This document shows, piece after piece, positions 36,418 to 48,424 of a stretch of DNA of 64,000 bases (positions are counted from its first letter, which is position 1; each line of letters starts with the position of its first letter). Origin of the DNA: Desulfobaculum xiamenense (lineage in GTDB: Bacteria > Desulfobacterota > Desulfovibrionia > Desulfovibrionales > Desulfovibrionaceae); assembly GCF_011927665.1 (NCBI RefSeq), contig NZ_JAATJA010000001.1:849019-913018 (forward strand), in the 5' to 3' direction. The notes under the pieces were generated by a model that ran no database searches, was not told where the DNA came from, and was given only the letters and a program-made list of their open reading frames with translations. A program made the translations under genes and the position numbers.

Positions 36418-37710
36418 ATGCAAACGAAAGATATTCTCGAATTCGACAGGACGCACATCTGGCATCCCTACACGTCCATGATCGACCCGCTTCCGGTGTA
36501 CCCGGTGGAGCGCGCCGAGGGCGTGCGCCTGCATCTGGCCGACGGCCGCGTGCTCGTGGACGGCATGAGTTCGTGGTGGGCCGCCATTCACGGCTATTCG
36601 CACCCCGTACTCGTGGATGCGCTGGCCCGGCAGGCACAGACCATGTCGCACGTCATGTTTGGTGGCATCACCCATCGCCCCGCCGTGGAGTTGGCAAGCC
36701 GCCTCGTGCGCATGACGCCCGCACCGCTCGAACGCGTCTTCTTCAGCGACTCCGGCTCCGTGGCCGTGGAGGTCGCCATCAAGATGGCTTTCCAGTACTG
36801 GCTGTCCAAGGGCGAACGCCGCCGCACGAAGCTCCTCACCGTACGCGGCGGCTACCATGGCGACACCTTCGAGACCATGAGCGTGTGCGACCCGGAAAAC
36901 GGCATGCACGGCATGTTCTCCGGCGTGCTGCCCCAGCATCTCTTCGCGCCGGTTCCCTCGCCCGCCTTCGGTGACGCGTGGAACGACGCACACTTCGAGG
37001 CCTTCGAAACTCTCCTGCGCGCCAACGAGGGCGACATCGCCGCCGTCATCCTCGAACCCGTGGTGCAGGGCGCGGGCGGCATGCGCTTCTACTCGCCGGA
37101 GTACCTGCGCCGCGTACGCGGGCTGTGCGACGAAACGGGCATCCTGCTCATCGCCGACGAAATCGCCACCGGCTTCGGCCGCACCGGCACACTCTTCGCC
37201 TGCGAGCACGCGGGCATCGCCCCGGACATCATGTGTGTGGGCAAGGCGCTGACTGGCGGCATGATGACCCTCGCCGCCACCCTCGCCACGGCAGAGGTGG
37301 CCGAAGGCATCTCGCGCGGGGAACTCTCCGTGCTCATGCACGGGCCGACGTTCATGGCCAATCCGCTGGCCTGCGCCGTGGCCTGCGCCAGCATCGACCT
37401 GCTTGAATCTTCGCCGTGGCGCGAGCGCGTGAGCGCCATCGAAACGCAGCTTCGCGAGGAGCTGGCCCCCTGCGCCGACGCGGATACCGTGGCCGACGTG
37501 CGGGCACTTGGGGCCATCGGTGTGGTCGAAACCGTCCGCCCCGTAAACATGGCCGCCATGCAGCGCTTCTTCGTGGAGCGCGGCGTGTGGGTCCGCCCCT
37601 TTGGACGACTGGTGTACATCATGCCGCCCTTCGTCACCGAACCGGACGATCTGTCCCTTCTCACCCACGCGGTGCGCGACGCCGCACGCGATCCGAGGCT
37701 CTTCTCATGA
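36418..37710 (+). CDS. bioA: Adenosylmethionine-8-amino-7-oxononanoate aminotransferase
   Basis: 430 residues, PLP class III aminotransferase. IWHPYTSM near the N-terminus, HGYSHP, GGYHGDT, LIADEIATGFGRTG (Asp247) and PLP lysine Lys276 in VGKALTGG are all present. It converts KAPA to DAPA with S-adenosylmethionine as amino donor. GGGAGGA lies before the ATG. The stop overlaps bioD by 4 nt. Confidence 0.95.
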   Translation: MQTKDILEFDRTHIWHPYTSMIDPLPVYPVERAEGVRLHLADGRVLVDGMSSWWAAIHGYSHPVLVDALARQAQTMSHVMFGGITHRPAVELASRLVRMTPAPLERVFFSDSGSVAVEVAIKMAFQYWLSKGERRRTKLLTVRGGYHGDTFETMSVCDPENGMHGMFSGVLPQHLFAPVPSPAFGDAWNDAHFEAFETLLRANEGDIAAVILEPVVQGAGGMRFYSPEYLRRVRGLCDETGILLIADEIATGFGRTGTLFACEHAGIAPDIMCVGKALTGGMMTLAATLATAEVAEGISRGELSVLMHGPTFMANPLACAVACASIDLLESSPWRERVSAIETQLREELAPCADADTVADVRALGAIGVVETVRPVNMAAMQRFFVERGVWVRPFGRLVYIMPPFVTEPDDLSLLTHAVRDAARDPRLFS

Positions 37711-38342
37711 CCGGAAATCTTCCCTCTCGCCTCTTCGTCACCGGCACGGACACCGACGCCGGAAAGACCGTCATCAGCGCCCTGCTCACCGCCGGGCTCG
37801 ACGCCCACTACTGGAAGCCCGTGCAGAGCGGCGTTCGCGAGGGCACCGACACCGAAACGGTGCGCCGCCTCACGGGCCTGCCCGCAGAGCGCTTCCTGCC
37901 CGAGGCCTACCGCCTCATGGAACCGCTTTCGCCCCATGCCGCCGCGCTCATCGACGGCGTGCGCATCGACCTCGACGCCATCCGCATGCCCAACCTCCCG
38001 GCCGATGCGCGGCTGGTGGTCGAAGGCGCGGGGGGCATAATGGTCCCGCTAAACGAAAATGCGCTGATGATCGATCTCATGGCTCGGCTGGGTCTGCCGG
38101 TGGTGCTGGTGGCCCGCTCAGGGCTGGGAACCATCAACCACACCCTGCTCTCCCTTGCGGCCCTGCGGCAGGCGGGGATCGAAGTCTGCGGCGTGGTGCT
38201 GAACGGTCCCCGCAATCCCGCGAATCGGGACGCTGTGGAAGAGTACGGAAAGGTGCGCGTGCTGGCCGAGGTGGAACCGCTGCCGCAGCTTTCCCCCGCC
38301 ACCCTGCGCGAGACCTTCGCCCGCGTCTTTGCGCAGGGCTGA
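37707..38342 (+). CDS. bioD: Dethiobiotin synthetase
   Basis: 211 residues from the ATG at 37707, inside the bioA stop (ATGA). Walker A GTDTDAGKT (13-21), WKPVQSG and VEGAGGIMVPL are BioD signatures. It closes the ureido ring using ATP and CO2. Tail-to-tail with bioC, with only a 30-nt gap and no clear terminator. Confidence 0.95.
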   Translation: MTGNLPSRLFVTGTDTDAGKTVISALLTAGLDAHYWKPVQSGVREGTDTETVRRLTGLPAERFLPEAYRLMEPLSPHAAALIDGVRIDLDAIRMPNLPADARLVVEGAGGIMVPLNENALMIDLMARLGLPVVLVARSGLGTINHTLLSLAALRQAGIEVCGVVLNGPRNPANRDAVEEYGKVRVLAEVEPLPQLSPATLRETFARVFAQG

Positions 38343-38372
38343 CACATTCCGGGGTCGCGGGGGGCGACGGAG

Positions 38373-39131
38373 CTAGGCCACCCTGCGGCCCCACAAATAG
38401 AGCACCCGCCACGTAGCGGCGACGCCATCCGCATCGCCGTGCAGCCGTCGGTATGTCGTCTCGAAATTCTCGTAGCATCGCCGGGAAAAGGCCCGTCCGG
38501 CTCCGGCACCGGTCACGCCGCTGCGCTTGAGGGTCCGCAGCAGGTCGCGCACGGTGGCGTAACGCTCCCGAACCTCCCACAGACGGCTCTCACACTCCAC
38601 ACCGGGCACCCCGTCCACAATCCACTCGTATTCCTGCGCACTGCGCAAGTGGACCACATCCCCGAATCCGCTCAAACGGCTGGCCTGCGCCAATTCCGAC
38701 AGCGTCCCCTCAACGAAGATTGAGAACGAAAAAGCGCCGCCGGGCCGCAGCAACCGCAGATTGGCGGGAATGGACCGGGCGGGGTCGCGATACCATTGCA
38801 TGGTCGAGGAACTGACGAGCAGATCGGCACAGCCCTCGGTCAGCGGCGGACATTCGCCGTCGGCCACGACATGGAGTTCGCGCGGGCCGCGTTCGGTCAT
38901 TGCCGCCAGCATTCCCGGCGCGATGTCGAGGCCAACATAGCGCTCGAAGGAGATGGACGCCCGCAGCATGGCCGTGGCCATGCCCTGCCCGGTGCCGATC
39001 TCCACGACCACGCCATGGTGACCGCCGGGCACGGCGCTCACGCAGTCGCGCGCGGCCTCGCGCTGCACGCGCGCCGCCTCGCAATAGCTCGCCCCGGCGC
39101 GGCTAAAGAATGCGGCGACCAGTCGCTTCAT
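38373..39131 (-). CDS. bioC: Malonyl-ACP O-methyltransferase (BioC)
   Basis: 252 residues from the ATG at 39131. Start MKRLVAAFFSRAGASYCEAA fits the BioC N-terminus (F-x-x-A-A-x-x-Y), and motif I is VEIGTGQG (43-50), followed by YVGLDIAPGML and LLVSSSTMQWYRDP. BioC methylates malonyl-ACP so the fatty-acid machinery can build pimeloyl-ACP methyl ester. Its start overlaps the upstream esterase gene by 29 nt. Biotin context makes the assignment firm. Confidence 0.9.
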   Translation of the reverse strand: MKRLVAAFFSRAGASYCEAARVQREAARDCVSAVPGGHHGVVVEIGTGQGMATAMLRASISFERYVGLDIAPGMLAAMTERGPRELHVVADGECPPLTEGCADLLVSSSTMQWYRDPARSIPANLRLLRPGGAFSFSIFVEGTLSELAQASRLSGFGDVVHLRSAQEYEWIVDGVPGVECESRLWEVRERYATVRDLLRTLKRSGVTGAGAGRAFSRRCYENFETTYRRLHGDADGVAATWRVLYLWGRRVA

Positions 39132-39729
39132 GCACCACCCCGGCAATAGTCCGCGCAGGCATGAAATGCCCCTCGGAAACGGAACGATAAAGCGCGCCCT
39201 CCAGCTTGCCAGCAATGCCGACAGCCTCGGACAGCGGGACGATCTTGTCGGACAGTCCGCCGATCACCAACACATTGCCGAAATGCCCCTCGGCCGGGAG
39301 CTGCGCTCTGGACTCCAAAAGGAAACGCAGGCCATCGAGGAGCGGCTCCACCGCGCCCTCGGCCCACGAGGCGTTAGCGTCGCGAATGCCGCAATTGCGA
39401 TAGAAGCCGCGCACCGTACGCTCCGGAAAGCGCTCCATGTTCGCGATCATCTTCTCCACCGTGCCCGTCAGCAGACAGCGGGTGAAAATGTAGAACGGCG
39501 CGACCAGCGTGATCTGCTCGTATAGCGGAGCAAGGCGCGCGATGTCGCGCAGGATAATGTGCGCCCCGGTGGACCAGCCAACGAGGGTGCCGCCACCGCA
39601 AAGCAGACGTTCGGCGATGTCCTGCGGGGCATGGTCCACAAAGGGCACGAGGAACTCGCCGCGTTCGGCGAACTCTGGATACAGGTCCGCGCGTCCGGCC
39701 CAGCCAGAAACGAAGGTGAAATCGCTCAT
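39103..39729 (-). CDS. Alpha/beta hydrolase, probable pimeloyl-ACP methyl ester esterase
   Basis: 208 residues from the ATG at 39729; the 4-nt overlap with bioF sets this start. A catalytic triad can be placed: Ser53 in GWSTGAH, Asp161 in GGLSDKIVP, His188 in SEGHFMP. N-terminal oxyanion region is FVSGWAG. Sandwiched between bioF and bioC, it should remove the BioC-added methyl group from pimeloyl-ACP. It is shorter than E. coli BioH (about 256) and lacks the BioG signature I would expect, so the exact esterase class (BioH, BioG, BioJ, BioK, BioV or other) is open. Confidence 0.78.
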   Translation of the reverse strand: MSDFTFVSGWAGRADLYPEFAERGEFLVPFVDHAPQDIAERLLCGGGTLVGWSTGAHIILRDIARLAPLYEQITLVAPFYIFTRCLLTGTVEKMIANMERFPERTVRGFYRNCGIRDANASWAEGAVEPLLDGLRFLLESRAQLPAEGHFGNVLVIGGLSDKIVPLSEAVGIAGKLEGALYRSVSEGHFMPARTIAGVVHEATGRRIL

Positions 39730-40907
39730 GAATGCATCTCTCCTGCCAGAGCGGCGAAAGCCTCGCGCACTCCGGCCATGTCGGTATCCGTAAGATCGGC
39801 CCGCAGCGACACGCGAAGGCGCGCCGTACCCGCCGGAACCGTCGGCGGACGTATGGCCGGAACACACAGGCCCCGAGCCATGAGAAATTCGCGCGCAGCC
39901 ACGGCCTCGTCGTTGCCGCCGATGATCACGGGCACGATCTGCGTGGTGGAATCGCCGGTGTCGAAGCCGAGGGCGGCAAGATGGGTACGCAGGTCCGCAG
40001 CCATGGTCAGCAGGCGCTCGGCGCGTCCGTCATCCGAACGCACCAGCCCGAGGGCCGCCAGATTGGCCGCCATGACCGACGGCGGCAAGGACGTGGAAAA
40101 GACGAAGGACCGCCCCCGGTTGCGCACGAGGGCCACAAGGTCCGCGCTCGCGGCGACATAGGCCCCGTACGAGCCGAAGGCCTTGCTGAAGGTGCCCATG
40201 TGCACGTCGATCTCATCAGCGAGGCCCATCTCGTGGGCAAGGCCGCGCCCGTTGCCGAGGATGCCCGCGGCATGCGCCTCGTCCACCACGATGAGCACAC
40301 CGTTGTCGCGGCACAGGCGGACGATGGCGGGCAGGTCCGCTCTGTCGCCGTCCATGCTGAACACGGTGTCCGTGACGAGGATTTTGCGCCGCGTGTCGGC
40401 GTGGCGAGCCATCATCACCGCAAGGTGGTCCATATCGCCATGGCGATAGCGCACATGCTCCGCGCGGGACAGGGTGATGCCGTCGATAATGCTTGCGTGA
40501 TTCAGCCGGTCCGAAAAGACCACGGTGTTGCGGTCGGCCAGCGCGGTCATGATGGCCACGTTGGCCGCATAGCCGGAACCGACCGTCAACGCGGCCTGCG
40601 TCCCCTTGAACTCGGCGAGTTCCCGCTCAAGGGCGTCGTACAGGGCAAAGGTGCCCGTGACGATGCGCGACGCCCCGCTACCCGCGCCGAGGTCCCGCGC
40701 GGCGTCGGCGGCGGCCTCGCGCAGGGCGGGATGCCCAGCAAGCCCAAGATAGTTGTTGGAGGCGAGGTTCAGGAGCCGCTGACCGGCATGGTCGATGAAG
40801 CGGTCCACCCCCCGGTCCACGAGAGGCATCTCGCGCAAAAGCGACTGTTCCCGCATCCGCGAAAGCTCCGCCGCTACGTATTCCTTCCAGAAATTATCCT
40901 GTGTCAT
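39726..40907 (-). CDS. bioF: 8-amino-7-oxononanoate synthase
   Basis: 393 residues, alpha-oxoamine synthase. LNLASNNYLGLAGHP at the N-terminus, VVDEAHAAG (Asp209, His212) and PLP lysine Lys242 in GTFSKAFGSYG. It condenses pimeloyl-ACP with L-alanine. First gene of the minus-strand bioF-esterase-bioC set. The 147-nt gap to the next plus-strand gene must hold both promoters; I saw no clear boxes. Confidence 0.95.
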   Translation of the reverse strand: MTQDNFWKEYVAAELSRMREQSLLREMPLVDRGVDRFIDHAGQRLLNLASNNYLGLAGHPALREAAADAARDLGAGSGASRIVTGTFALYDALERELAEFKGTQAALTVGSGYAANVAIMTALADRNTVVFSDRLNHASIIDGITLSRAEHVRYRHGDMDHLAVMMARHADTRRKILVTDTVFSMDGDRADLPAIVRLCRDNGVLIVVDEAHAAGILGNGRGLAHEMGLADEIDVHMGTFSKAFGSYGAYVAASADLVALVRNRGRSFVFSTSLPPSVMAANLAALGLVRSDDGRAERLLTMAADLRTHLAALGFDTGDSTTQIVPVIIGGNDEAVAAREFLMARGLCVPAIRPPTVPAGTARLRVSLRADLTDTDMAGVREAFAALAGEMHS

Positions 40908-41054: not shown

Positions 41055-42146
41055 ATGCCCTTTGCGCTGCCCGCCTACAACGAACCCGATTTCGCAGCCC
41101 TGTCCGGCGCGCCTCTTGCCCGCTTCGAGGCGGTCATCACCCCCGGTGTCGCCCCGGACGGCTATCACGCCACCACCATCTTCCCGGAATACTTCCAACT
41201 GGCCCCGCAGCGCTGGATTATGCCCGCCCAATCGCGCATGGACTGCGTGGTCGTCCGCCGTGGAGACGAGCTGGACGTGGTGGAATTCCGCAGGCTCGCC
41301 CCCGGCGACATGGTCTGCGTCGGCCGCAGGGAGAACGGGGAGGACGGCATCTACGTGCATACCGATCCCTTCGGAAGCATCGAAAACGCGCGGGAAAAGT
41401 TCGCCTTCCGCACACGCATGACGCGCGAAAGCTCCTTCTCCATCGACTACGACGAACTCTACGACCTGCTGGAATTCGAGCGCGAAAACGGATTTATCGT
41501 CTGGGTGCTCGGCCCGGCGGTGATCTTCGACCACGACTCGCGTGAGGCGCTCACCCGGCTGGTGGAGGCGGGATACGTACACGGGCTGCTAGCCGGAAAC
41601 GCGCTGGCCACGCACGATCTTGAGGCGGCCATGCATTCCACTGCTCTCGGGCAGGAAATCTACACCCGGCGCACAGCCGCCCTTGGCCACTATCACCACC
41701 TCGATGCCCTGAACGAGGTGCGCCGCCTCGGCTCCATGCGCGCGGCCATGGAGCACGGGCTGGTCAAAAACGGCGTGATGCGCGCCATCCACGAGCGAAA
41801 CATCCCCTTCGTGCTGGCCGGGTCCATCCGCGACGACGGTCCCATGCCCGAGGTCGTGGCCGATTGCTACAAGGCGCAGGACGCCATGCGCAACGTGGTC
41901 CGGCAGGCCACCACGGTCATGGCCATGGCCACGCAACTGCACTCCATCGCCACGGGCAACATGACGCCGTCCTACACCGTGACCGGCGGCAGCATCCGCC
42001 CGGTCTACTTCTACTCTGTAGATATGAGCGAATTCGTCGTCGACAAGCTGGCCAACCGAGGCTCCCTCTCGGCGCGCTCCATCCTGACCAACGTGCAGGA
42101 CTTCCTCGTCACCACCGAACGCGGATTGCGCAAGCGGCAGCACTGA
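41055..42146 (+). CDS. LOR/SDH-domain protein, ornithine cyclodeaminase type (TIGR00300-like)
   Basis: 363 residues; start set by GAGGAGG six nt before the ATG. The C-terminal half carries VWVLGPAVIFDHDSREAL, AGNALATHDLE, GHYHHLDALNEVRR, VLAGSIRDDGPMPEV, QLHSIATGNM and KLANRGSLSAR. This is the pattern of the LOR/SDH family found in archaea, plants and as the second half of cyanobacterial arginine dihydrolase fusions, where it acts as an NAD-dependent ornithine cyclodeaminase (ornithine to proline plus ammonia). The arginine dihydrolase half is absent. Convergent with carbamate kinase across 20 nt. The family call is good; the reaction is inferred. Confidence 0.78.
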   Translation: MPFALPAYNEPDFAALSGAPLARFEAVITPGVAPDGYHATTIFPEYFQLAPQRWIMPAQSRMDCVVVRRGDELDVVEFRRLAPGDMVCVGRRENGEDGIYVHTDPFGSIENAREKFAFRTRMTRESSFSIDYDELYDLLEFERENGFIVWVLGPAVIFDHDSREALTRLVEAGYVHGLLAGNALATHDLEAAMHSTALGQEIYTRRTAALGHYHHLDALNEVRRLGSMRAAMEHGLVKNGVMRAIHERNIPFVLAGSIRDDGPMPEVVADCYKAQDAMRNVVRQATTVMAMATQLHSIATGNMTPSYTVTGGSIRPVYFYSVDMSEFVVDKLANRGSLSARSILTNVQDFLVTTERGLRKRQH

Positions 42147-42166
42147 ACGGATGACGAAGCGGCCAT

Positions 42167-43108
42167 TCAGCGCACGATTTCGGTGCCGCCGCGTCCGGCC
42201 ACGGCGTCCTCTATGGCGTCCATGCCGCAGATGACGGCCCGCGAACCGCCACCGCGCAGGAATTCCGCACAGGCCTCGATCTTCGGCCCCATGCTACCGG
42301 GCGGAAACTGCCCGCCACGCAGGTGCTCCATGGCCTCGTCGATGCGAAGGCGCTCCACGAGCCGCTCTGCGGGCGTACCGTAATCGAGATACGCACCAGC
42401 CACGTCCGTGACGATGACGAACACATCCACGCCCACCTCCTGCGCCAGCCGAGCGCTGGCGAGGTCCTTGTCGATGACCGCGTCCACCCCGCAAAATCGC
42501 CGCCCCTCCCGCACCACAGGGATGCCGCCGCCACCGCAGCAGATGACAATGAAGCCATCCGCCACCAGCGTGGCGATTTCGCGCTTCTCCACGATAGTCA
42601 GCGGGCGTGGAGAGGCCACCACCCGCCGCAGGCCCTTGGCAGTCCGGCGCACGGGATAGCCCGCCGAGGCGGCCTGCTCCTCGCTCAACACCGGGCCAAT
42701 GGGCTTGGTGGGGGCGGCAAAGGCCGGATCATCGGCATCGACCACCACGTAGCTGATGAGGCTGACCAAAGGCTTCTGCCCGCCAGCCTCAAGCTGCATG
42801 AGTTCTGCGTCCAGCGTGGATTCCATCATGTAGCCGATCTGTCCCTGCGTCTGCGCCACGAGGATTTCCAGCGGCAGACGCACGGAATGCGGGCAGCACT
42901 CCTGCCGCAGCAGCAACTCCCCCACCTGCGGACCATTGCCATGGGTGAGGATGATGCGCCAGTCACGCGAAAGCCGCGCCACCTGCGACAGCGGGAGCCG
43001 AAGATTCTCGAACTGCTCGGCGATGGTGCCGGTCTGCCCCTTGCGCACCAGCGCGTTGCCGCCAAGAGCCACGAGAAGCGTCCGTGCCGCATCCCGCCCG
43101 GCGCTCAT
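42167..43108 (-). CDS. arcC: Carbamate kinase
   Basis: 313 residues of the amino-acid kinase fold: VALGGNALVRKG at the N-terminus, ILTHGNGPQVGELLL, CCGGGGIPVV, VIDKDLASARLA and GSMGPKIEAC near the end. The enzyme converts carbamoyl phosphate and ADP to ATP, ammonia and CO2. No ornithine carbamoyltransferase or arginine deiminase lies nearby. It starts inside the stop of the GTPase gene (ATGA overlap), so the pair is coupled. Confidence 0.93.
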   Translation of the reverse strand: MSAGRDAARTLLVALGGNALVRKGQTGTIAEQFENLRLPLSQVARLSRDWRIILTHGNGPQVGELLLRQECCPHSVRLPLEILVAQTQGQIGYMMESTLDAELMQLEAGGQKPLVSLISYVVVDADDPAFAAPTKPIGPVLSEEQAASAGYPVRRTAKGLRRVVASPRPLTIVEKREIATLVADGFIVICCGGGGIPVVREGRRFCGVDAVIDKDLASARLAQEVGVDVFVIVTDVAGAYLDYGTPAERLVERLRIDEAMEHLRGGQFPPGSMGPKIEACAEFLRGGGSRAVICGMDAIEDAVAGRGGTEIVR

Positions 43109-44433
43109 CCCGCGCCCCGCTCGTCGAGCAGCCGCAGCAGCGCGTCCTCCAGACGCGCCGGACCGCCGTCCGCATAGTCGTAGCGCACACGCATGGTCGG
43201 ATGCTCGATGCGCAGGAAGCGCCCAAGGCGGGCTGGCGTGCCGAAGAGCACAAGATCGCAGTCCACGGCATTGATAGTCCGCTCAAGGTCCGTCAACTGG
43301 TGCGCATGGTAGCCCATGGCCGGGAGCACCGGTCCGATGTGCGTGTAGCGCTCGAACACGCCCGCGATGGAGCCGCACGCGAAGGGACGCGGGTCCACCA
43401 GCTCCGCCGCGCCGAAGGTCCGGGCCGCGACGGTCCCCGCGCCATAGGCCATGCCCCCGTGGGTCAGCGTCGGGCCATCCTCCACCACCAGCACCCGCCG
43501 CCCCGCGATGGCCGCAGGGTCGTCCACCGTCACCGGAGATTTGGCCAGCACCACTTCGGCCGAGGGATTGGCCGCCGCGATGTTGTCCATGACCTCCCGC
43601 ACGCGGCTTGAGGGCGCGGTATCCACCTTGTTGATGACGGCGATGTCGGCCATAAGCATATTCGTCTCGCCGGGATAGTAGGTGAGTTCGTGCCCGGCGC
43701 GGTGCGGGTCGAAAACCGTGATGTGTACCGTGGAGCGGAAGAATGGCGTATCGTTGTTGCCACCGTCCCAGACGATGACGTCGGCCTCGCGTTCGGCCTC
43801 GCGCAGGATGGCGGCGTAGTCCACACCTGCGTAGACCACCAGCCCGCATTCCACCAGCGGCTCGTACTCCTCGCGCTCCTCGATAGTGCAGCGATGCTGA
43901 TCGAAATCATCAACTGTCTCGTAGCGCTGGACAATCTGCCGCGAAAGGTCGCCATAGGGCATGGGGTGGCGCACCACCACGACCCGCCGGCCACGGGCGC
44001 GCAATATGTCGCACACCTTGCGCGTGGTGGGCGACTTGCCGCATCCGGTGCGCACCGCGCACACCGAGACAACAGGGCACGACGCTTCGAGCATGGTGTA
44101 CGTCGCCCCGATCAGCATGAAATCCGCACCCTCGGCCATGACCTGCGAGGCCGTATGCATCACCTGCATGTGCGGCACGTCGGAATAGGAAAACGCCACG
44201 AGGTCCACGCGATGCTTACGGATGATGTCGCGCAGTTCGCTTTCGGGCCGGATGGGAATGCCCTGCGGATAGCCGCCACCGGCCAACTCGGCGGGATAGG
44301 CCCGTCCCTCTATGCCCTCGATCTGGGCTGCGGTGAAGGCCACCACCTCGTAACGCGGATTGTCACGGAAGTAGACGTTGAAATTGTGGAAATCCCGGCC
44401 AGCGGCCCCCATGATGACAACCTTCTCGACCAT
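43105..44433 (-). CDS. Predicted P-loop GTPase (COG2403 type)
   Basis: 442 residues from the ATG at 44433 (GGAGG upstream). The N-terminal Rossmann-like part (VVIMGAAGRDFHNFNVYF) is followed by a P-loop in VRTGCGKSPTTRKV (Lys133), then VVRHPMPYGDL, WDGGNNDTPFF, ADIAVINKVDTA and VVEDGPTLTHGG. This matches a poorly characterised GTPase family related by sequence to cyclic 2,3-diphosphoglycerate synthetase. In this window it is coupled to carbamate kinase. Function unknown; a role in carbamoyl phosphate or amino-nitrogen metabolism is a context guess. Confidence 0.8.
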   Translation of the reverse strand: MVEKVVIMGAAGRDFHNFNVYFRDNPRYEVVAFTAAQIEGIEGRAYPAELAGGGYPQGIPIRPESELRDIIRKHRVDLVAFSYSDVPHMQVMHTASQVMAEGADFMLIGATYTMLEASCPVVSVCAVRTGCGKSPTTRKVCDILRARGRRVVVVRHPMPYGDLSRQIVQRYETVDDFDQHRCTIEEREEYEPLVECGLVVYAGVDYAAILREAEREADVIVWDGGNNDTPFFRSTVHITVFDPHRAGHELTYYPGETNMLMADIAVINKVDTAPSSRVREVMDNIAAANPSAEVVLAKSPVTVDDPAAIAGRRVLVVEDGPTLTHGGMAYGAGTVAARTFGAAELVDPRPFACGSIAGVFERYTHIGPVLPAMGYHAHQLTDLERTINAVDCDLVLFGTPARLGRFLRIEHPTMRVRYDYADGGPARLEDALLRLLDERGAG

Positions 44434-44534: not shown

Positions 44535-44591
44535 ATAGGACGGTGGACCGAAGTCTGTCGATCAAAACGGCGCAATCCATGGAGATGCTCT

Positions 44592-44825
44592 GTGAACAAG
44601 CTGCGGCGCATACTGGCTGGAACGGAATTCCACATTCTGGTCTTCGCGCTCGCCTGTCTCGTCTTCAGTTGGCCGCTCGTCACGCTTGCGGACGTTCCCG
44701 GCGGCCCGCATCTCTACATCTATCTCTACGGATTCTGGGCGCTACTCGTCATCCTCCTGTGCGCCATGGGCTGGGCGGGATTCCCCGAGGAAGAACCTCC
44801 GGACGACCCCGGAAAGGGCGACTGA
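44592..44825 (+). CDS. Small two-helix membrane protein, partner of the symporter-kinase
   Basis: 77 residues from a GTG start with GGAG seven nt upstream. Two hydrophobic helices (about residues 12-33 and 43-64) and an acidic, Pro-rich C-terminal tail (PEEEPPDDPGKGD). It ends 2 nt before the ATG of the 1198-residue symporter-kinase. Small 2-TM subunits also precede some bacterial solute:sodium symporters, so an assembly or regulatory partner is likely. No named family recognised. Confidence 0.72.
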   Translation: MNKLRRILAGTEFHILVFALACLVFSWPLVTLADVPGGPHLYIYLYGFWALLVILLCAMGWAGFPEEEPPDDPGKGD

Positions 44826-44827
44826 AC

Positions 44828-47800
44828 ATGCCCAAGCAAACCATCATCTATGCGGTGTTCGGCATCTATCTGGCGGCACTGCTCACAATCGCTCTCGCCG
44901 TCGAGCGCTCGCCCAGCCTGCGCAAGCGCGTCTCCGACAGCCCGCTTGTCTACGCGCTATCGCTCGCCGTGTACCACACCGTGTGGAGCTTCTACGGCAT
45001 CACGGGTCAGGCAGCCACGTCCGGACTCGCGTATCTGACCACCCACATCGGCTCGACACTCGGCATCTGCCTGTGGCCGTCCGTGCTCCGCCGCATCATT
45101 CGCATCAAGCGGCGCCAGCGCATCACCAGTGTGGCTGACTTCCTGTCCATCAGCTACGGCCGATCACAGGGCGTTGCCATGCTCGTCACCATCATCGCCG
45201 TGATCGGCTCACTCCCTTACGTCTCCCTGCAAATCAAAGGGATACTCGCTTCGTTGACCATCATGACGGAAGCCGAAGGCACCGCCCACGCCCTGCACGG
45301 CCCCATCCTCGTCACGATCATGATCCTATTCACCATTCTCGCAGGAGTACGGCGAATCGACCCAACGGAGCGACATCAAGGCATGGTCGCCGCCGTGGCC
45401 GCGGAGTCCATAGTCAAGCTCGTGGCCTTCGTCACCGTCGGCATTGTGGTGACCTATTCCCTGAACGACGGTTTCGGGGACCTCTTCCGGCGAGCCGCAG
45501 CCTCTCCGTGGGCAGAACTGACCGGCCTCTCCATGGAACGAGAATCATCCTATGCCTCGTGGATGACGGGCATGATCCTCGCCATGAACGCCATCCTCTT
45601 CCTGCCCCGGCAATTCCACGTGGCCGTGGTGGAAAACTCGGACGAACGCCATATCCGCCACGCCATATGGATATTGCCGCTCTACATGCTGCTGTTTTCC
45701 TTCTTCGCCTTCCCGCTGGCGCTCAGTGGGCTGCTCGCGGGAATGCCCATCGATCAGGCGGATACCTTCGTCCTAAGCATCCCACACGCCAACAACATGC
45801 CGTGGCTGGCCGGGCTGGCCTTCTTCGGCGGCTTCTCCGCCGGGCTGAGCATGGTCATGATCACGACCATGACCATGGCGAACATGATAACCAACCATCT
45901 CCTGCTGCCCATGGTGGAAATCATTCCACCACTTGGCGGACTTCGGCGCAGGCTTCTCCAGTGTCGATGGGCCGTGGTCGCCATGTTCATCCTTCTCGGC
46001 TACGGCTTCAATGCCATGGTCGGCGAAAGCTATATGCTGGTGCGCATGGGCAGCATTTCCTTCGCTGCCGTGCTGCAATTCGCCCCAGCGGCCATCGGCG
46101 GACTCTACTGGTCACGGGCAAGCCGCGCAGGTGCGCTGTCAGGACTCGGCGCTGGCTTCGCCGTCTGGTGCCACACGCTGCTGTTGCCCGCCTTCATTCG
46201 CAGCGGCTGGCTTTCCGCCAGCATTCTGAGCGAGGGCCCCTTCGGTATCGCCCTACTCGTTCCGGAACGGCTCCTCGGGCTGACAGCCATGGACTCCATC
46301 GCCCATGGCGTGTTCTGGTCCATGCTCGTCAACATTAGCTGCTATATCACCGTCTCCCTCGCCTCCACACCCGTGCGAAGCGATGCGCCCGATCATGAAT
46401 TGTTCATGGACGACAGTACAGCTCGCGAACTCTCCCTGCCGCTGACGGAACACCTCCAACGCAACATCCCACTTGCCGAACGTGCGCAACGCATCGAACG
46501 CCTGTTCCACGACTACTACTCCCCGGAACAGGCGCATGCGCACACGCAGACGAGCATACGCGCCGTGATTGACGATGAAAGGGACGTCATTACCATCGAG
46601 GAACTCATGCGCATCCGCGACCATGTGGAGCGCACACTCACCGGAAGCCTCGGTGCGGCCATGGCCCGGCGCGCCCTGCACCGCGAACCGCTCTTCGACG
46701 AAGGGGAGCAAAGGCAACTCGCGCAGATGTATGCAAACATTCTGACGGAACTGCACGTCCCGCCGAACGAATTGCGCAGGCGCATCAATTTCCATCAGGA
46801 ACGCGAGGCTCTACTCACGGCCCACGCGGACGAACTCGCACAGGCCAACCGGCAACTGCGCGCCGCCGAGGAAAAATACCGCTCCATCTTCGAAAATGGC
46901 GTGGAAGGCATGTTCCAGTCCACCCCGGACGGCAGATTCATGAGCGCCAATCCGTCCATGGCGCGCATACTCGGCTACGACACGCCGGAGGATCTCGTCG
47001 CCTCAATCACCGACATCGGCACGCAGGTCTACGCCTCGCCACTTGATCGGCAGGATCTCATTGCCCAACTCACAAAAAACGGTTTCGTGGCCGGACACGA
47101 GCATCAGATACGCAGAAAGGACGGTAGCCGCCGATGGGTCGAAATCCACGCCCGCCTCGTGCGCGACGAAACCGGCGCACCAGCCCACATCGACGGAACC
47201 CTCAAGGACATCTCCAAACGCAAACAGGCCGAGGCCGAAATCCTGCGCGCCAGCCGCTATGTAAAAAGCATCATCGACTCCATGCCATCAATCATGATCT
47301 CCGTGGACGAGGAGCTACGCGTCACACACTGGAATCTCGCCGCTGAATCCGCAACTGGGCTCGCAAGCGACAGCGCCCTCAACCGCTACATCGGCGACGT
47401 GTATGCCGTCTTCGAACCGCAGACGCCTGCCCTACGCACCGCGCTGGAGACGGGCACGCCACAGCGGCTGGAGAAAATCCCTCGCCTGCGCGATGAATCG
47501 CTGCGCTACATCGAAATAATGATCTATCCCATGTCTGCGGAAGGAAAGAAGGAGGCCGTCATCCGTGAGGACGACGTGACCGAGCGCGTGCGCATGGAAG
47601 AGATGATGATCCAGACGGAGAAGATGATGTCCGTCGGCGGACTTGCGGCAGGAATGGCCCACGAGATCAACAACCCCCTCGGCGGCATACTTCAGGCCAC
47701 GCAGAACATACGCCGCCGCCTCTCAACGGAACTGGAGGCGAACCGACGCGTCGCCGAAGAGGTGGCCTGTCCGCTCGACCACATGCTGGAGTACATGCGC

Positions 47801-48424
47801 AAACGCAAGATTCTCGACATGCTCGACGGAATCCGCGAATCCGGGGAACGCGCCGCAAGGATCGTCGCCAACATGCTGGAATTCAGCCGCCGTAGCGAAT
47901 CGAAGAAGACCTTCCACGACATGGGCGAACTGCTGGACCGCACACTCGATCTCGCCGCCAAGGACTACGATCTGAAGAAGAGCTACGACTTCAGACACGT
48001 CACCATCGTCCGCGACTACTCGCCGGACGTGCCCGCCGTTCCCTGCATCGCCTCGGAACTCGAACAGGTATTCCTGAACATTCTCAAAAACGCGGCGCAG
48101 GCCATGACGTTCCATGGCTCGTCCGGACCGCCGACCATCACCATCCGGACACTGCTGCACAACGGCATGGCCCGCGTGGACATCACGGACAACGGTCCGG
48201 GCATGGACGAGCACACCAGACTGCAGGTCTTCAAACCCTTCTTCACCACCAAGGCCGTCGGCATCGGAACGGGCCTCGGGCTTTCCGTTTCGTACTTCAT
48301 CATCACCACGAACCACGGTGGTCAATTCACCGTCGAGAGCGCACCCGGCAAGGGGGCGACCTTCAGCATCCGGCTTCCCATCCCACAGCGGGACGACGCT
48401 CACCTTCCGCCTGAAATCTCATGA
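44828..48424 (+). CDS. Solute:sodium symporter-like sensor histidine kinase with two PAS domains
   Basis: About 1198 residues. The first 560 or so form about 13 membrane helices of the SSSF type (VYHTVWSFYGITGQAATSG, RITSVADFLSISYGRSQG, PSLSM-like helices), as in CbrA/PutP-like kinases. Two PAS domains follow (from about residues 684 and 811), then HisKA with His945 in MAHEINNPLGG and a HATPase with LNILKNAAQAM, DNGPGMDE and GTGLGLSVS. No receiver domain at the end. It probably reads transport or presence of a small carboxylate or amino acid. No response regulator lies in the window, so it is an orphan kinase. Confidence 0.9.
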   Translation: MPKQTIIYAVFGIYLAALLTIALAVERSPSLRKRVSDSPLVYALSLAVYHTVWSFYGITGQAATSGLAYLTTHIGSTLGICLWPSVLRRIIRIKRRQRITSVADFLSISYGRSQGVAMLVTIIAVIGSLPYVSLQIKGILASLTIMTEAEGTAHALHGPILVTIMILFTILAGVRRIDPTERHQGMVAAVAAESIVKLVAFVTVGIVVTYSLNDGFGDLFRRAAASPWAELTGLSMERESSYASWMTGMILAMNAILFLPRQFHVAVVENSDERHIRHAIWILPLYMLLFSFFAFPLALSGLLAGMPIDQADTFVLSIPHANNMPWLAGLAFFGGFSAGLSMVMITTMTMANMITNHLLLPMVEIIPPLGGLRRRLLQCRWAVVAMFILLGYGFNAMVGESYMLVRMGSISFAAVLQFAPAAIGGLYWSRASRAGALSGLGAGFAVWCHTLLLPAFIRSGWLSASILSEGPFGIALLVPERLLGLTAMDSIAHGVFWSMLVNISCYITVSLASTPVRSDAPDHELFMDDSTARELSLPLTEHLQRNIPLAERAQRIERLFHDYYSPEQAHAHTQTSIRAVIDDERDVITIEELMRIRDHVERTLTGSLGAAMARRALHREPLFDEGEQRQLAQMYANILTELHVPPNELRRRINFHQEREALLTAHADELAQANRQLRAAEEKYRSIFENGVEGMFQSTPDGRFMSANPSMARILGYDTPEDLVASITDIGTQVYASPLDRQDLIAQLTKNGFVAGHEHQIRRKDGSRRWVEIHARLVRDETGAPAHIDGTLKDISKRKQAEAEILRASRYVKSIIDSMPSIMISVDEELRVTHWNLAAESATGLASDSALNRYIGDVYAVFEPQTPALRTALETGTPQRLEKIPRLRDESLRYIEIMIYPMSAEGKKEAVIREDDVTERVRMEEMMIQTEKMMSVGGLAAGMAHEINNPLGGILQATQNIRRRLSTELEANRRVAEEVACPLDHMLEYMRKRKILDMLDGIRESGERAARIVANMLEFSRRSESKKTFHDMGELLDRTLDLAAKDYDLKKSYDFRHVTIVRDYSPDVPAVPCIASELEQVFLNILKNAAQAMTFHGSSGPPTITIRTLLHNGMARVDITDNGPGMDEHTRLQVFKPFFTTKAVGIGTGLGLSVSYFIITTNHGGQFTVESAPGKGATFSIRLPIPQRDDAHLPPEIS

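What the first reader, a model, noticed from the sequence alone, without database searches (positions are those of the whole stretch)
41055..44433. Possible undescribed nitrogen module: ornithine cyclodeaminase-type enzyme, carbamate kinase, COG2403 GTPase
A LOR/SDH-domain gene faces a carbamate kinase gene that is ATGA-coupled to a P-loop GTPase of unknown function. There is no arginine deiminase, dihydrolase or ornithine carbamoyltransferase, so this is not the ordinary arcABC pathway. A route that takes ornithine to proline and gains ATP from carbamoyl phosphate, with a GTPase partner, is plausible.
Basis: partly seen in the sequence, partly recalled or inferred. Interest (0 to 1): 0.72.

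Follow-up and report, generated by a model that had tools for sequence, protein, structure and literature searches.

The report
Ornithine-carbamoyl phosphate module with unknown GTPase
Three neighbouring genes, predicted to make proline from ornithine, to make ATP from carbamoyl phosphate, and to encode a GTP-binding protein of unknown job, recur together in related bacteria, and the unknown protein tends to travel with carbamate kinase, which gives a first lead on what it does.

Summary
An ornithine-cyclodeaminase-type gene (NF052526, 567 bits, cut-off 440) faces a carbamate kinase (CK) gene that overlaps (ATGA) a gene for a two-domain GTP-binding protein without Pfam or NCBIfam family. Of 87 cyclodeaminase loci, 26 carry the GTPase, 25 of them convergent. 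In four GTPase-CK loci an ornithine aminotransferase replaces the cyclodeaminase; others have ornithine carbamoyltransferase, ornithine racemase or D-ornithine aminomutase. GTPase and CK co-occur: CK in 32 of 39 genomes with GTPase against 8 of 159 without (within mixed families 18 of 20 against 3 of 35); second phylum 64 of 101 against 72 of 247. Arginine deiminase: 0 of 198 genomes of the window's phylum sample. The GTPase has the fold of cyclic-2,3-diphosphoglycerate synthetase but lacks two of its substrate residues and has a guanine-type NKVD motif. Best reading: the module drains both products of citrulline phosphorolysis, ornithine and carbamoyl phosphate, with the GTPase a catalytic partner of unknown reaction, possibly in the place of arginine deiminase.

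The parts
41055..42146 (+). ornithine-cyclodeaminase-type (LOR/SDH, ArgZ C-terminal type) gene, 363 aa
   Evidence: NF052526 567 bits; AlphaFold model pLDDT 87.8 matches M. maripaludis 3c2q Z 34.5 over 318 aa and AgrE 6lrg, titled complex with ornithine and NAD+
42167..43108 (-). carbamate kinase gene, 313 aa
   Evidence: NF009007 over cut-off, TIGR00746 just under; carbamate kinase 1e19 E 4e-74
43105..44433 (-). two-domain GTP-binding protein (Rossmann domain + SIMIBI-class P-loop domain), 442 aa, without Pfam or NCBIfam family
   Evidence: model pLDDT 90.3; best fold matches cDPG synthetase Z 23.2, LpxK 19.7, HypB 17.9, UreG 15.8
43105..43108 (-). ATGA overlap of GTPase stop and carbamate kinase start
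   Evidence: sequence
44032..44052 (-). P-loop RTGCGKS (residues 128-134) of the GTPase
   Evidence: column counts
43621..43632 (-). NKVD (residues 268-271), guanine-type G4 motif
   Evidence: NKxD in 21 of 34 aligned homologues

Best explanation
The three genes form a catabolic module at the ornithine / carbamoyl phosphate node. The cyclodeaminase turns ornithine into proline and ammonia; carbamate kinase turns carbamoyl phosphate into ATP, ammonia and CO2. Ornithine and carbamoyl phosphate are the two products of citrulline phosphorolysis by ornithine carbamoyltransferase, so removing both pulls that unfavourable reaction forward with the cell's own ArgF-type enzyme. The third protein is an enzyme rather than a mere regulator: it binds GTP in a SIMIBI-class P-loop domain with a Rossmann domain in front, and works on the same stretch as carbamate kinase. 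My best guess for its step, an inference, is upstream of or at citrulline, in the place that arginine deiminase has in arcABC (about 0.25). Shown: gene identity, recurrence, partner exchange, co-occurrence, fold. Inferred: enzyme activities, direction, GTP binding and the GTPase reaction.
For: Convergent order in 25 of 26 loci that have cyclodeaminase and GTPase. Partner exchange: L132, L133, L134 and L136 carry an ornithine aminotransferase with GTPase and CK; L132, L134, L136 score 515-524 bits against a cut-off of 378, all four 540-551 bits. L139 has a TIGR00300-type cyclodeaminase beside the GTPase, 418 bits, cut-off 411. OTC with GTPase and CK: L136 (OTC over cut-off), L151 and L133 (tblastn only), L243 (OTC and CK over cut-off), L244, L255, L268 (tblastn). 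L258 has OraE, 1335 bits, cut-off 800. GTPase/CK: 32 of 39 vs 8 of 159, p 1e-22; within 12 mixed families 18 of 20 vs 3 of 35, exact p 1.5e-6; second phylum 64 of 101 vs 72 of 247, p 3.6e-9. Haloarchaeal plasmid with arcC divergent to the GTPase. ADI 0 of 198; among CK-positive second-phylum genomes 3 of 40 with GTPase vs 12 of 40 without (p 0.0099), over cut-off 0 vs 9 (p 0.0012). Arginase next to the cyclodeaminase in 12 of 87 loci, none with GTPase in the locus, and 0 of 9 such genomes searched whole has it. Enzyme-like conservation: WDGGNND and GA[AG]GRDFHNF in 34 of 34.
Against: 61 of 87 cyclodeaminase loci lack the GTPase, so the cyclodeaminase does not need it. 7 of 39 and 37 of 101 GTPase genomes have no full CK match. 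In L237, L241 and L270 the GTPase lies by OTC and argB, i.e. in arginine biosynthesis clusters (OTC and argB of L241 over cut-off), which fits a catabolic deiminase place poorly. L135 and L137 carry an Orr-like plus arginase fusion beside GTPase and CK, against a clean arginase/GTPase exchange. 3 of 40 GTPase genomes have an ADI-like gene, under cut-off. In 35 of 81 GTPase loci none of the probed partners lies within 3 kb. Kinases not next to the GTPase can belong to other carbamoyl phosphate pathways. Arginine deimination as known (recalled) needs no NTP.
Confidence: 0.55

Rival explanations
1. GTPase and carbamate kinase together make carbamoyl phosphate: the GTPase forms carbamate (or carboxyphosphate) from bicarbonate and ammonia with GTP, the kinase phosphorylates it, a split analogue of carbamoyl-phosphate synthetase feeding ornithine carbamoyltransferase.
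For: Coupling of GTPase and CK; GTPase by OTC and argB in L237, L241, L270; fold relatives include dethiobiotin synthase, an ATP-dependent carboxylase, Foldseek E 3.7e-3; CK can act anabolically in Pyrococcus (PMC6022934, passages).
Against: Neighbours that consume ornithine (cyclodeaminase, OAT, Orr, OraE) and a butyrate kinase in L243 point to fermentation, where spending GTP on carbamate makes little sense. 37 of 101 second-phylum GTPase genomes lack a CK match. Presence of classical carAB was not tested.
Confidence: 0.15
2. The GTPase is a maturation or chaperone GTPase of the HypB/UreG/MeaB kind that serves one of the neighbouring enzymes, for example by delivering a metal or cofactor to the cyclodeaminase.
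For: HypB Z 17.9, UreG 15.8, MeaB 14.4 in the P-loop domain; NCBIfam calls the cyclodeaminase family nickel-pincer-nucleotide dependent; LarC is in the genome; second-phylum loci have the aminomutase OraE nearby.
Against: The same GTPase goes with OAT, OTC and CK, for which I know of no shared cofactor. Of 46 cyclodeaminase genomes searched 34 have no GTPase (I had given mostly loci without the GTPase, so this share is not representative). A Rossmann domain and many invariant residues outside the G motifs suggest a substrate. LarC is in 50 of 59 relatives anyway.
Confidence: 0.15
3. The GTPase is a true cyclic-2,3-diphosphoglycerate synthetase, as public annotation says, and its neighbours are incidental.
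For: Best full-length fold match, Z 23.2 over 370 residues; profile match E 1.3e-8 to 9sxb; annotated so on a haloarchaeal plasmid.
Against: K145 and R146, which close on 2,3-DPG in the M. fervidus enzyme (PMC10690619, abstract and Results read), are T129 and G130 here, both invariant in 34 homologues. NKVD stands where the ATP enzyme has other residues. The abstract says the compound is found exclusively in hyperthermophilic methanogens. Identity over the fold alignment 15%.
Confidence: 0.04
4. No metabolic unit: the cyclodeaminase serves proline synthesis or ornithine removal alone, and the CK-GTPase operon is an independent neighbour kept together by descent.
For: The cyclodeaminase is common without the others (61 of 87 loci); the genes converge and need not be co-transcribed; 4 of 7 cyclodeaminase genomes of the window's family and order show no GTPase near it.
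Against: Convergent order kept across differently named Deltaproteobacteria/Desulfo- records with gaps of -1 to 2591 bases (L035 apart); exchange for OAT and OTC, which share ornithine; GTPase in 14 of 23 cyclodeaminase genomes vs 25 of 175 others, p 3.5e-6, not corrected for kinship.
Confidence: 0.15

Closest known systems
Arginine deiminase pathway (arcABC)
   Same: carbamate kinase; ornithine and carbamoyl phosphate as the products handled; GTPase can lie next to OTC and CK
   Different: no arginine deiminase in any of 198 genomes of the phylum sample; in this genome an OTC in an argF-G-H type operon only; ornithine is consumed by a neighbour; an extra GTP-binding protein
Cyanobacterial AgrE/ArgZ and archaeal MMP1218 ornithine cyclodeaminases
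   Same: cyclodeaminase fold and conserved motifs; MMP_1218 was reported to make proline from ornithine (PMC10809761, passages)
   Different: no arginine dihydrolase domain; separate NCBIfam family NF052526; TIGR00300 cut-off not reached
Cyclic 2,3-diphosphoglycerate synthetase of Methanothermus fervidus
   Same: two-domain architecture and overall fold of the GTPase (Z 23.2)
   Different: substrate residues K145/R146 replaced, NKxD motif present, carbamate kinase as frequent partner
Ornithine fermentation cluster (Orr, OraE, Or-4)
   Same: in the second phylum the same GTPase lies in such clusters with CK and OTC
   Different: none of these genes was seen beside the window's trio; ornithine is predicted to be cyclised instead

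Membership tests
NCBIfam NF052526 (ODC_var) | score over curated cut-off, whole length | tested here: met
   567 bits vs 440, residues 1-360
NCBIfam NF052526 (ODC_var) | converts ornithine to proline | not testable with these tools
   no assay; fold match to 3c2q and AgrE only
NCBIfam NF052526 (ODC_var) | nickel-pincer nucleotide cofactor | tested here: inconclusive
   the name is NCBI's; LarC present; relative 6lrg is titled a complex with ornithine and NAD+; larB and larE not searched
TIGR00300 archaeal ornithine cyclodeaminase | score over cut-off | tested here: not met
   237 vs 411 bits
Carbamate kinase | curated family models | tested here: met
   NF009007 284 vs 266 met; TIGR00746 340 vs 358 missed narrowly
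Arginine deiminase pathway arcABC | arginine deiminase | tested here: not met
   TIGR01078 at E 1e-30: 0 of 198 including own genome; control Lactococcus found
Arginine deiminase pathway arcABC | dedicated catabolic OTC | tested here: inconclusive
   two PF00185 genes in the genome; one stands before what reads as argG and argH; the second scores low (80 bits) and was taken for an aspartate carbamoyltransferase without a test
Cyclic 2,3-diphosphoglycerate synthetase | two-domain fold | tested here: met
   8oru Z 23.2, 370 residues aligned, rmsd 11.7
Cyclic 2,3-diphosphoglycerate synthetase | K145 and R146 holding the substrate | tested here: not met
   T129 and G130 at the aligned places
HypB/UreG-type SIMIBI GTPases | P-loop and NKxD motif | tested here: met
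   RTGCGKS and NKVD in the window; NKxD 21 of 34, [NT]KxN in 10 of the other 13; that NKxD means guanine specificity is recalled
HypB/UreG-type SIMIBI GTPases | metal delivery to a nickel enzyme | not testable with these tools
   partners vary
Carbamoyl-phosphate synthetase (split) | replacement of carAB | not tested

The most novel reading that the evidence does not exclude
The GTPase is a GTP-linked enzyme that interconverts arginine and citrulline: in catabolic clusters it deiminates arginine while conserving energy as GTP, in arginine biosynthesis clusters it runs the other way. With ArgF-type OTC and carbamate kinase it would complete an arginine-degrading route without arginine deiminase, and cyclodeaminase, OAT or Orr take the ornithine. 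What allows it: position with OTC and CK, absence or rarity of ADI, presence in both degradative and biosynthetic arginine clusters, fold of a small-molecule phosphotransferase.
Probability: 0.08. Interest if true: 0.85.

Novelty: new variant of a known kind. Interest (0 to 1): 0.6.

Why it matters
It gives a testable role to a large protein family that a public record calls a cyclic-diphosphoglycerate synthase, found here in 39 of 198 genomes of one phylum sample, 101 of 348 of another and 3 plasmid records of haloarchaea. It also points to a form of arginine or citrulline breakdown that works without arginine deiminase and ends in proline, of interest for nitrogen and energy budgets of anaerobes.

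Tried and rejected
Considered and rejected: plain arcABC (no ADI). True cDPG synthetase (residues). GTPase as a helper of the cyclodeaminase alone (it occurs with OAT and OTC). Neighbouring ABC transporter, an aminotransferase that reads like the lysine-pathway kind, and biotin genes as module parts (in a minority of the trio loci). dGTPase-like and ferritin-like neighbours of some GTPases (names from reading) were not followed.

Led nowhere: searches of the held open-access library for the combination. Searches found 0 papers; one search found 1 (passages read), one search found 3 and one search found 1 (listings seen); one search found 228, of which 12 listings were seen. Nothing seen there describes this gene set; that is all that can be said on absence in print. 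LarC proved uninformative, in 50 of 59 relatives. LarA is not among the 50 fold-match rows shown for the cyclodeaminase, which excludes nothing.

Limits: cyclodeaminase alignment A4 leaves out L046 and L086 (stop codon in the stated stretch) and most of the 80 loci. GTPase alignment A3 has 34 of 62 extracted sequences (which dropped hits covering under 395 residues); A2 has 23. One search was given 47 of 80 loci, mostly those without GTPase in the locus; 46 were searched, L041 not held. Neighbourhoods of 40 of 101 second-phylum GTPase genomes were fetched, picked by score and contig length, not at random. One search fetched 14 loci of kinases not beside the GTPase in 13 GTPase genomes and 6 of the 9 kinase-positive genomes without GTPase. 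One search used the first 40 of 64 and first 40 of 72 genomes by handle number. Families and counts were typed by hand, counting CK matches of 206 bits or more; the p-values are not corrected for kinship. Model names checked: in L243 Orr (432 vs 480) and phosphate butyryltransferase (298 vs 410) are under their cut-offs, Or-4, CK, OTC and butyrate kinase over; in L135 the Orr model scores 400 vs 480.
Full report
Observation. All three open reading frames are at the stated coordinates. The first is an ornithine-cyclodeaminase-type protein of the ArgZ C-terminal kind, the second a carbamate kinase, the third a P-loop protein without a Pfam or NCBIfam family. The kinase and GTPase genes overlap by ATGA and converge on the cyclodeaminase gene, with 20 bases between the stop codons.

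Recurrence of the trio. From 80 public loci that encode a close relative of the cyclodeaminase, six stretches of unnamed relatives and the window, 26 of 87 also hold the GTPase; 25 of these have it convergent to the cyclodeaminase and 22 of the 25 have a carbamate kinase in the locus, next to the GTPase except in L035. L010 and L033 are the same contig. In the same-genus relative (L009) no kinase match lies in the stretch, and the GTPase directly faces the cyclodeaminase. Four of the seven cyclodeaminase genomes in the window's family and order show no GTPase in the stretch fetched. Twelve of 87 loci have an arginase within 1 kb of the cyclodeaminase, none of them with the GTPase; two of these arginases were checked and are over the TIGR01229 cut-off. 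L066 and L081 have OTC next to the cyclodeaminase, and L088 has cyclodeaminase, GTPase and OTC on one strand (OTC of L066 and L088 over cut-off).

The GTPase in its own right. In 198 genomes of the window's phylum the GTPase is in 39, NF052526 matches in 23, 15 of them over cut-off, carbamate kinase of 330 bits or more in 40, ornithine aminotransferase of 525 bits or more in 9. GTPase and kinase share 32 genomes (p 1e-22), GTPase and aminotransferase 8 of the 9 (p 9e-6), GTPase and any cyclodeaminase match 14 (p 3.5e-6); GTPase and kinase lie within 3 kb in 20 genomes, one of them (G173) with a kinase cut by the contig end. In 12 families that have genomes with and without the GTPase, kinase is present in 18 of 20 against 3 of 35 (exact p 1.5e-6), so the link is not only common descent at family level. 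In a second phylum (that of the Bacillota MAG behind L088) the GTPase is in 101 of 348 genomes and kinase in 136, together in 64; 16 of 17 pairs on one contig that I compared lie within 3 kb.

Partner exchange. Where the cyclodeaminase is absent, four loci of the first phylum carry an ornithine aminotransferase with GTPase and kinase (L132, L133, L134, L136). L136 also has an OTC over cut-off (567 bits, cut-off 515) and L133 carbamoyltransferase-like matches. L139 has a cyclodeaminase of the TIGR00300 type (418 bits, cut-off 411). L135, L137, L138 and L141 share an amino-acid-transporter-like gene (the L138 copy scanned: weak match to the aromatic amino acid family, 44 bits, cut-off 350) with GTPase and a more distant carbamate kinase (the L138 copy over the NF009007 cut-off). 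L135 and L137 add a fusion of a racemase domain with an arginase domain. In the second phylum an operon in L243 reads Or-4/GlmL, Orr, Memo-like, radical SAM, carbamate kinase, OTC, GTPase, phosphate butyryltransferase, butyrate kinase (Memo and radical SAM by my reading; Orr and phosphate butyryltransferase under their cut-offs). L258 has OraE, and L237, L241 and L270 have OTC and argB. Probes within 3 kb in 81 GTPase loci: carbamate kinase 27, OTC 13, cyclodeaminase 10, other class III aminotransferases 8, Orr 5, argB 4, OAT 4, OraE 3, GlmL-like 3; beyond 4 kb kinase, OTC, cyclodeaminase and OAT are all zero, while OraE (8), GlmL-like (6) and Orr (5) occur there too. 35 of 81 loci have none of the probed genes within 3 kb. 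On a haloarchaeal plasmid arcC lies divergent to the GTPase, which is annotated cyclic 2,3-diphosphoglycerate synthase.

When GTPase and kinase are in one genome but apart (14 loci, 13 genomes), the kinase stands without the probed genes in most, in three beside what reads like thioredoxin reductase, and in five (L179, L180, L182, L184, L186) with carbamoyltransferase genes, four of them with a dihydropyrimidinase-like protein (names from reading, not models). So part of the co-occurrence may reflect other carbamoyl phosphate pathways.

Arginine deiminase. None in 198 genomes at E 1e-30. In 80 kinase-positive genomes of the second phylum it is in 3 of 40 with the GTPase and 12 of 40 without (p 0.0099), over cut-off 0 against 9 (p 0.0012). 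Kinship is not corrected, so this is a hint.

What the GTPase is. The model is good (pLDDT 90.3). Whole-length match: cDPG synthetase, Z 23.2 over 370 residues with rmsd 11.7; P-loop part: LpxK 19.7, HypB 17.9, UreG 15.8; front part: UDP-quinovosamine 4-dehydrogenase Z 14.2 and Rex-type Rossmann domains, Z 12.4 to 13.6 over 95-98 residues. In the M. fervidus enzyme K145 and R146 close on the substrate (PMC10690619, abstract and Results read); here these places are T129 and G130, invariant in 34 homologues. Residues 268-271 read NKVD (NKxD in 21 of 34), recalled as the guanine motif; GTP binding itself is not shown. GA[AG]GRDFHNF, RHPM, WDGGNND and THG are invariant in 34 of 34, which speaks for a small-molecule active site.

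The cyclodeaminase. Its model matches 3c2q (Z 34.5, 318 residues) and AgrE, whose entry 6lrg is titled a ternary complex with ornithine and NAD+. A paper states that MMP_1218 makes proline from ornithine (PMC10809761, passages). NCBIfam names the family nickel-pincer-nucleotide dependent; I found no paper for that in the held library (one of the two papers searched inside) and could not decide the cofactor.

The genome. Two PF00185 genes; one stands before what read as argG and argH, so a biosynthetic OTC exists. No ornithine aminotransferase match at E 1e-90. Arginase, proC and carAB were not searched.

How it most likely works. OTC run backwards on citrulline gives ornithine and carbamoyl phosphate; the two enzymes of the window remove one product each, yielding proline, ammonia and ATP. 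That is inference from gene content and from the loci where OTC is explicit. The GTPase belongs to the same stretch; a place before or at citrulline is my best guess, and the split-synthetase and chaperone readings remain open.

Noticed in passing
L229 and L230 (haloarchaeal plasmids NZ_CP147842.1, NZ_CP100462.1): In L229 arcC and the GTPase are whole and divergent; in L230 both appear as fragments, with an IS1595 transposase gene between them, as if both decayed together.
   Followed up: partly
window 36418-40907: Genes that read like bioA, bioD, bioC, a BioG/H-like protein and bioF lie just before the module.
   Followed up: no
window 44543-48424: Long frame that reads like a sodium/solute symporter fused to PAS and histidine kinase domains, next to the GTPase.
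   Followed up: no
L014 7205-8283 (also L007, L008; same order as the window): Cyclodeaminase gene split into two neighbouring open frames.
   Followed up: no
L135 11754-13859 and L137 4438-6447: Fusion of an ornithine-racemase-like domain with an arginase domain (PF01168 + PF00491) near GTPase and carbamate kinase.
   Followed up: partly
L153, L154, L160: GTPase near an aldehyde dehydrogenase, a ferritin-like protein and a class III aminotransferase of uncertain substrate.
   Followed up: no
L181, L185, L192: Carbamate kinase next to a gene that reads like thioredoxin reductase in GTPase-positive genomes.
   Followed up: no
L231, L238, L243, L264: Memo-like and radical SAM genes recur near the GTPase in the second phylum, in L238, L243 and L264 together with ornithine racemase.
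   Followed up: no
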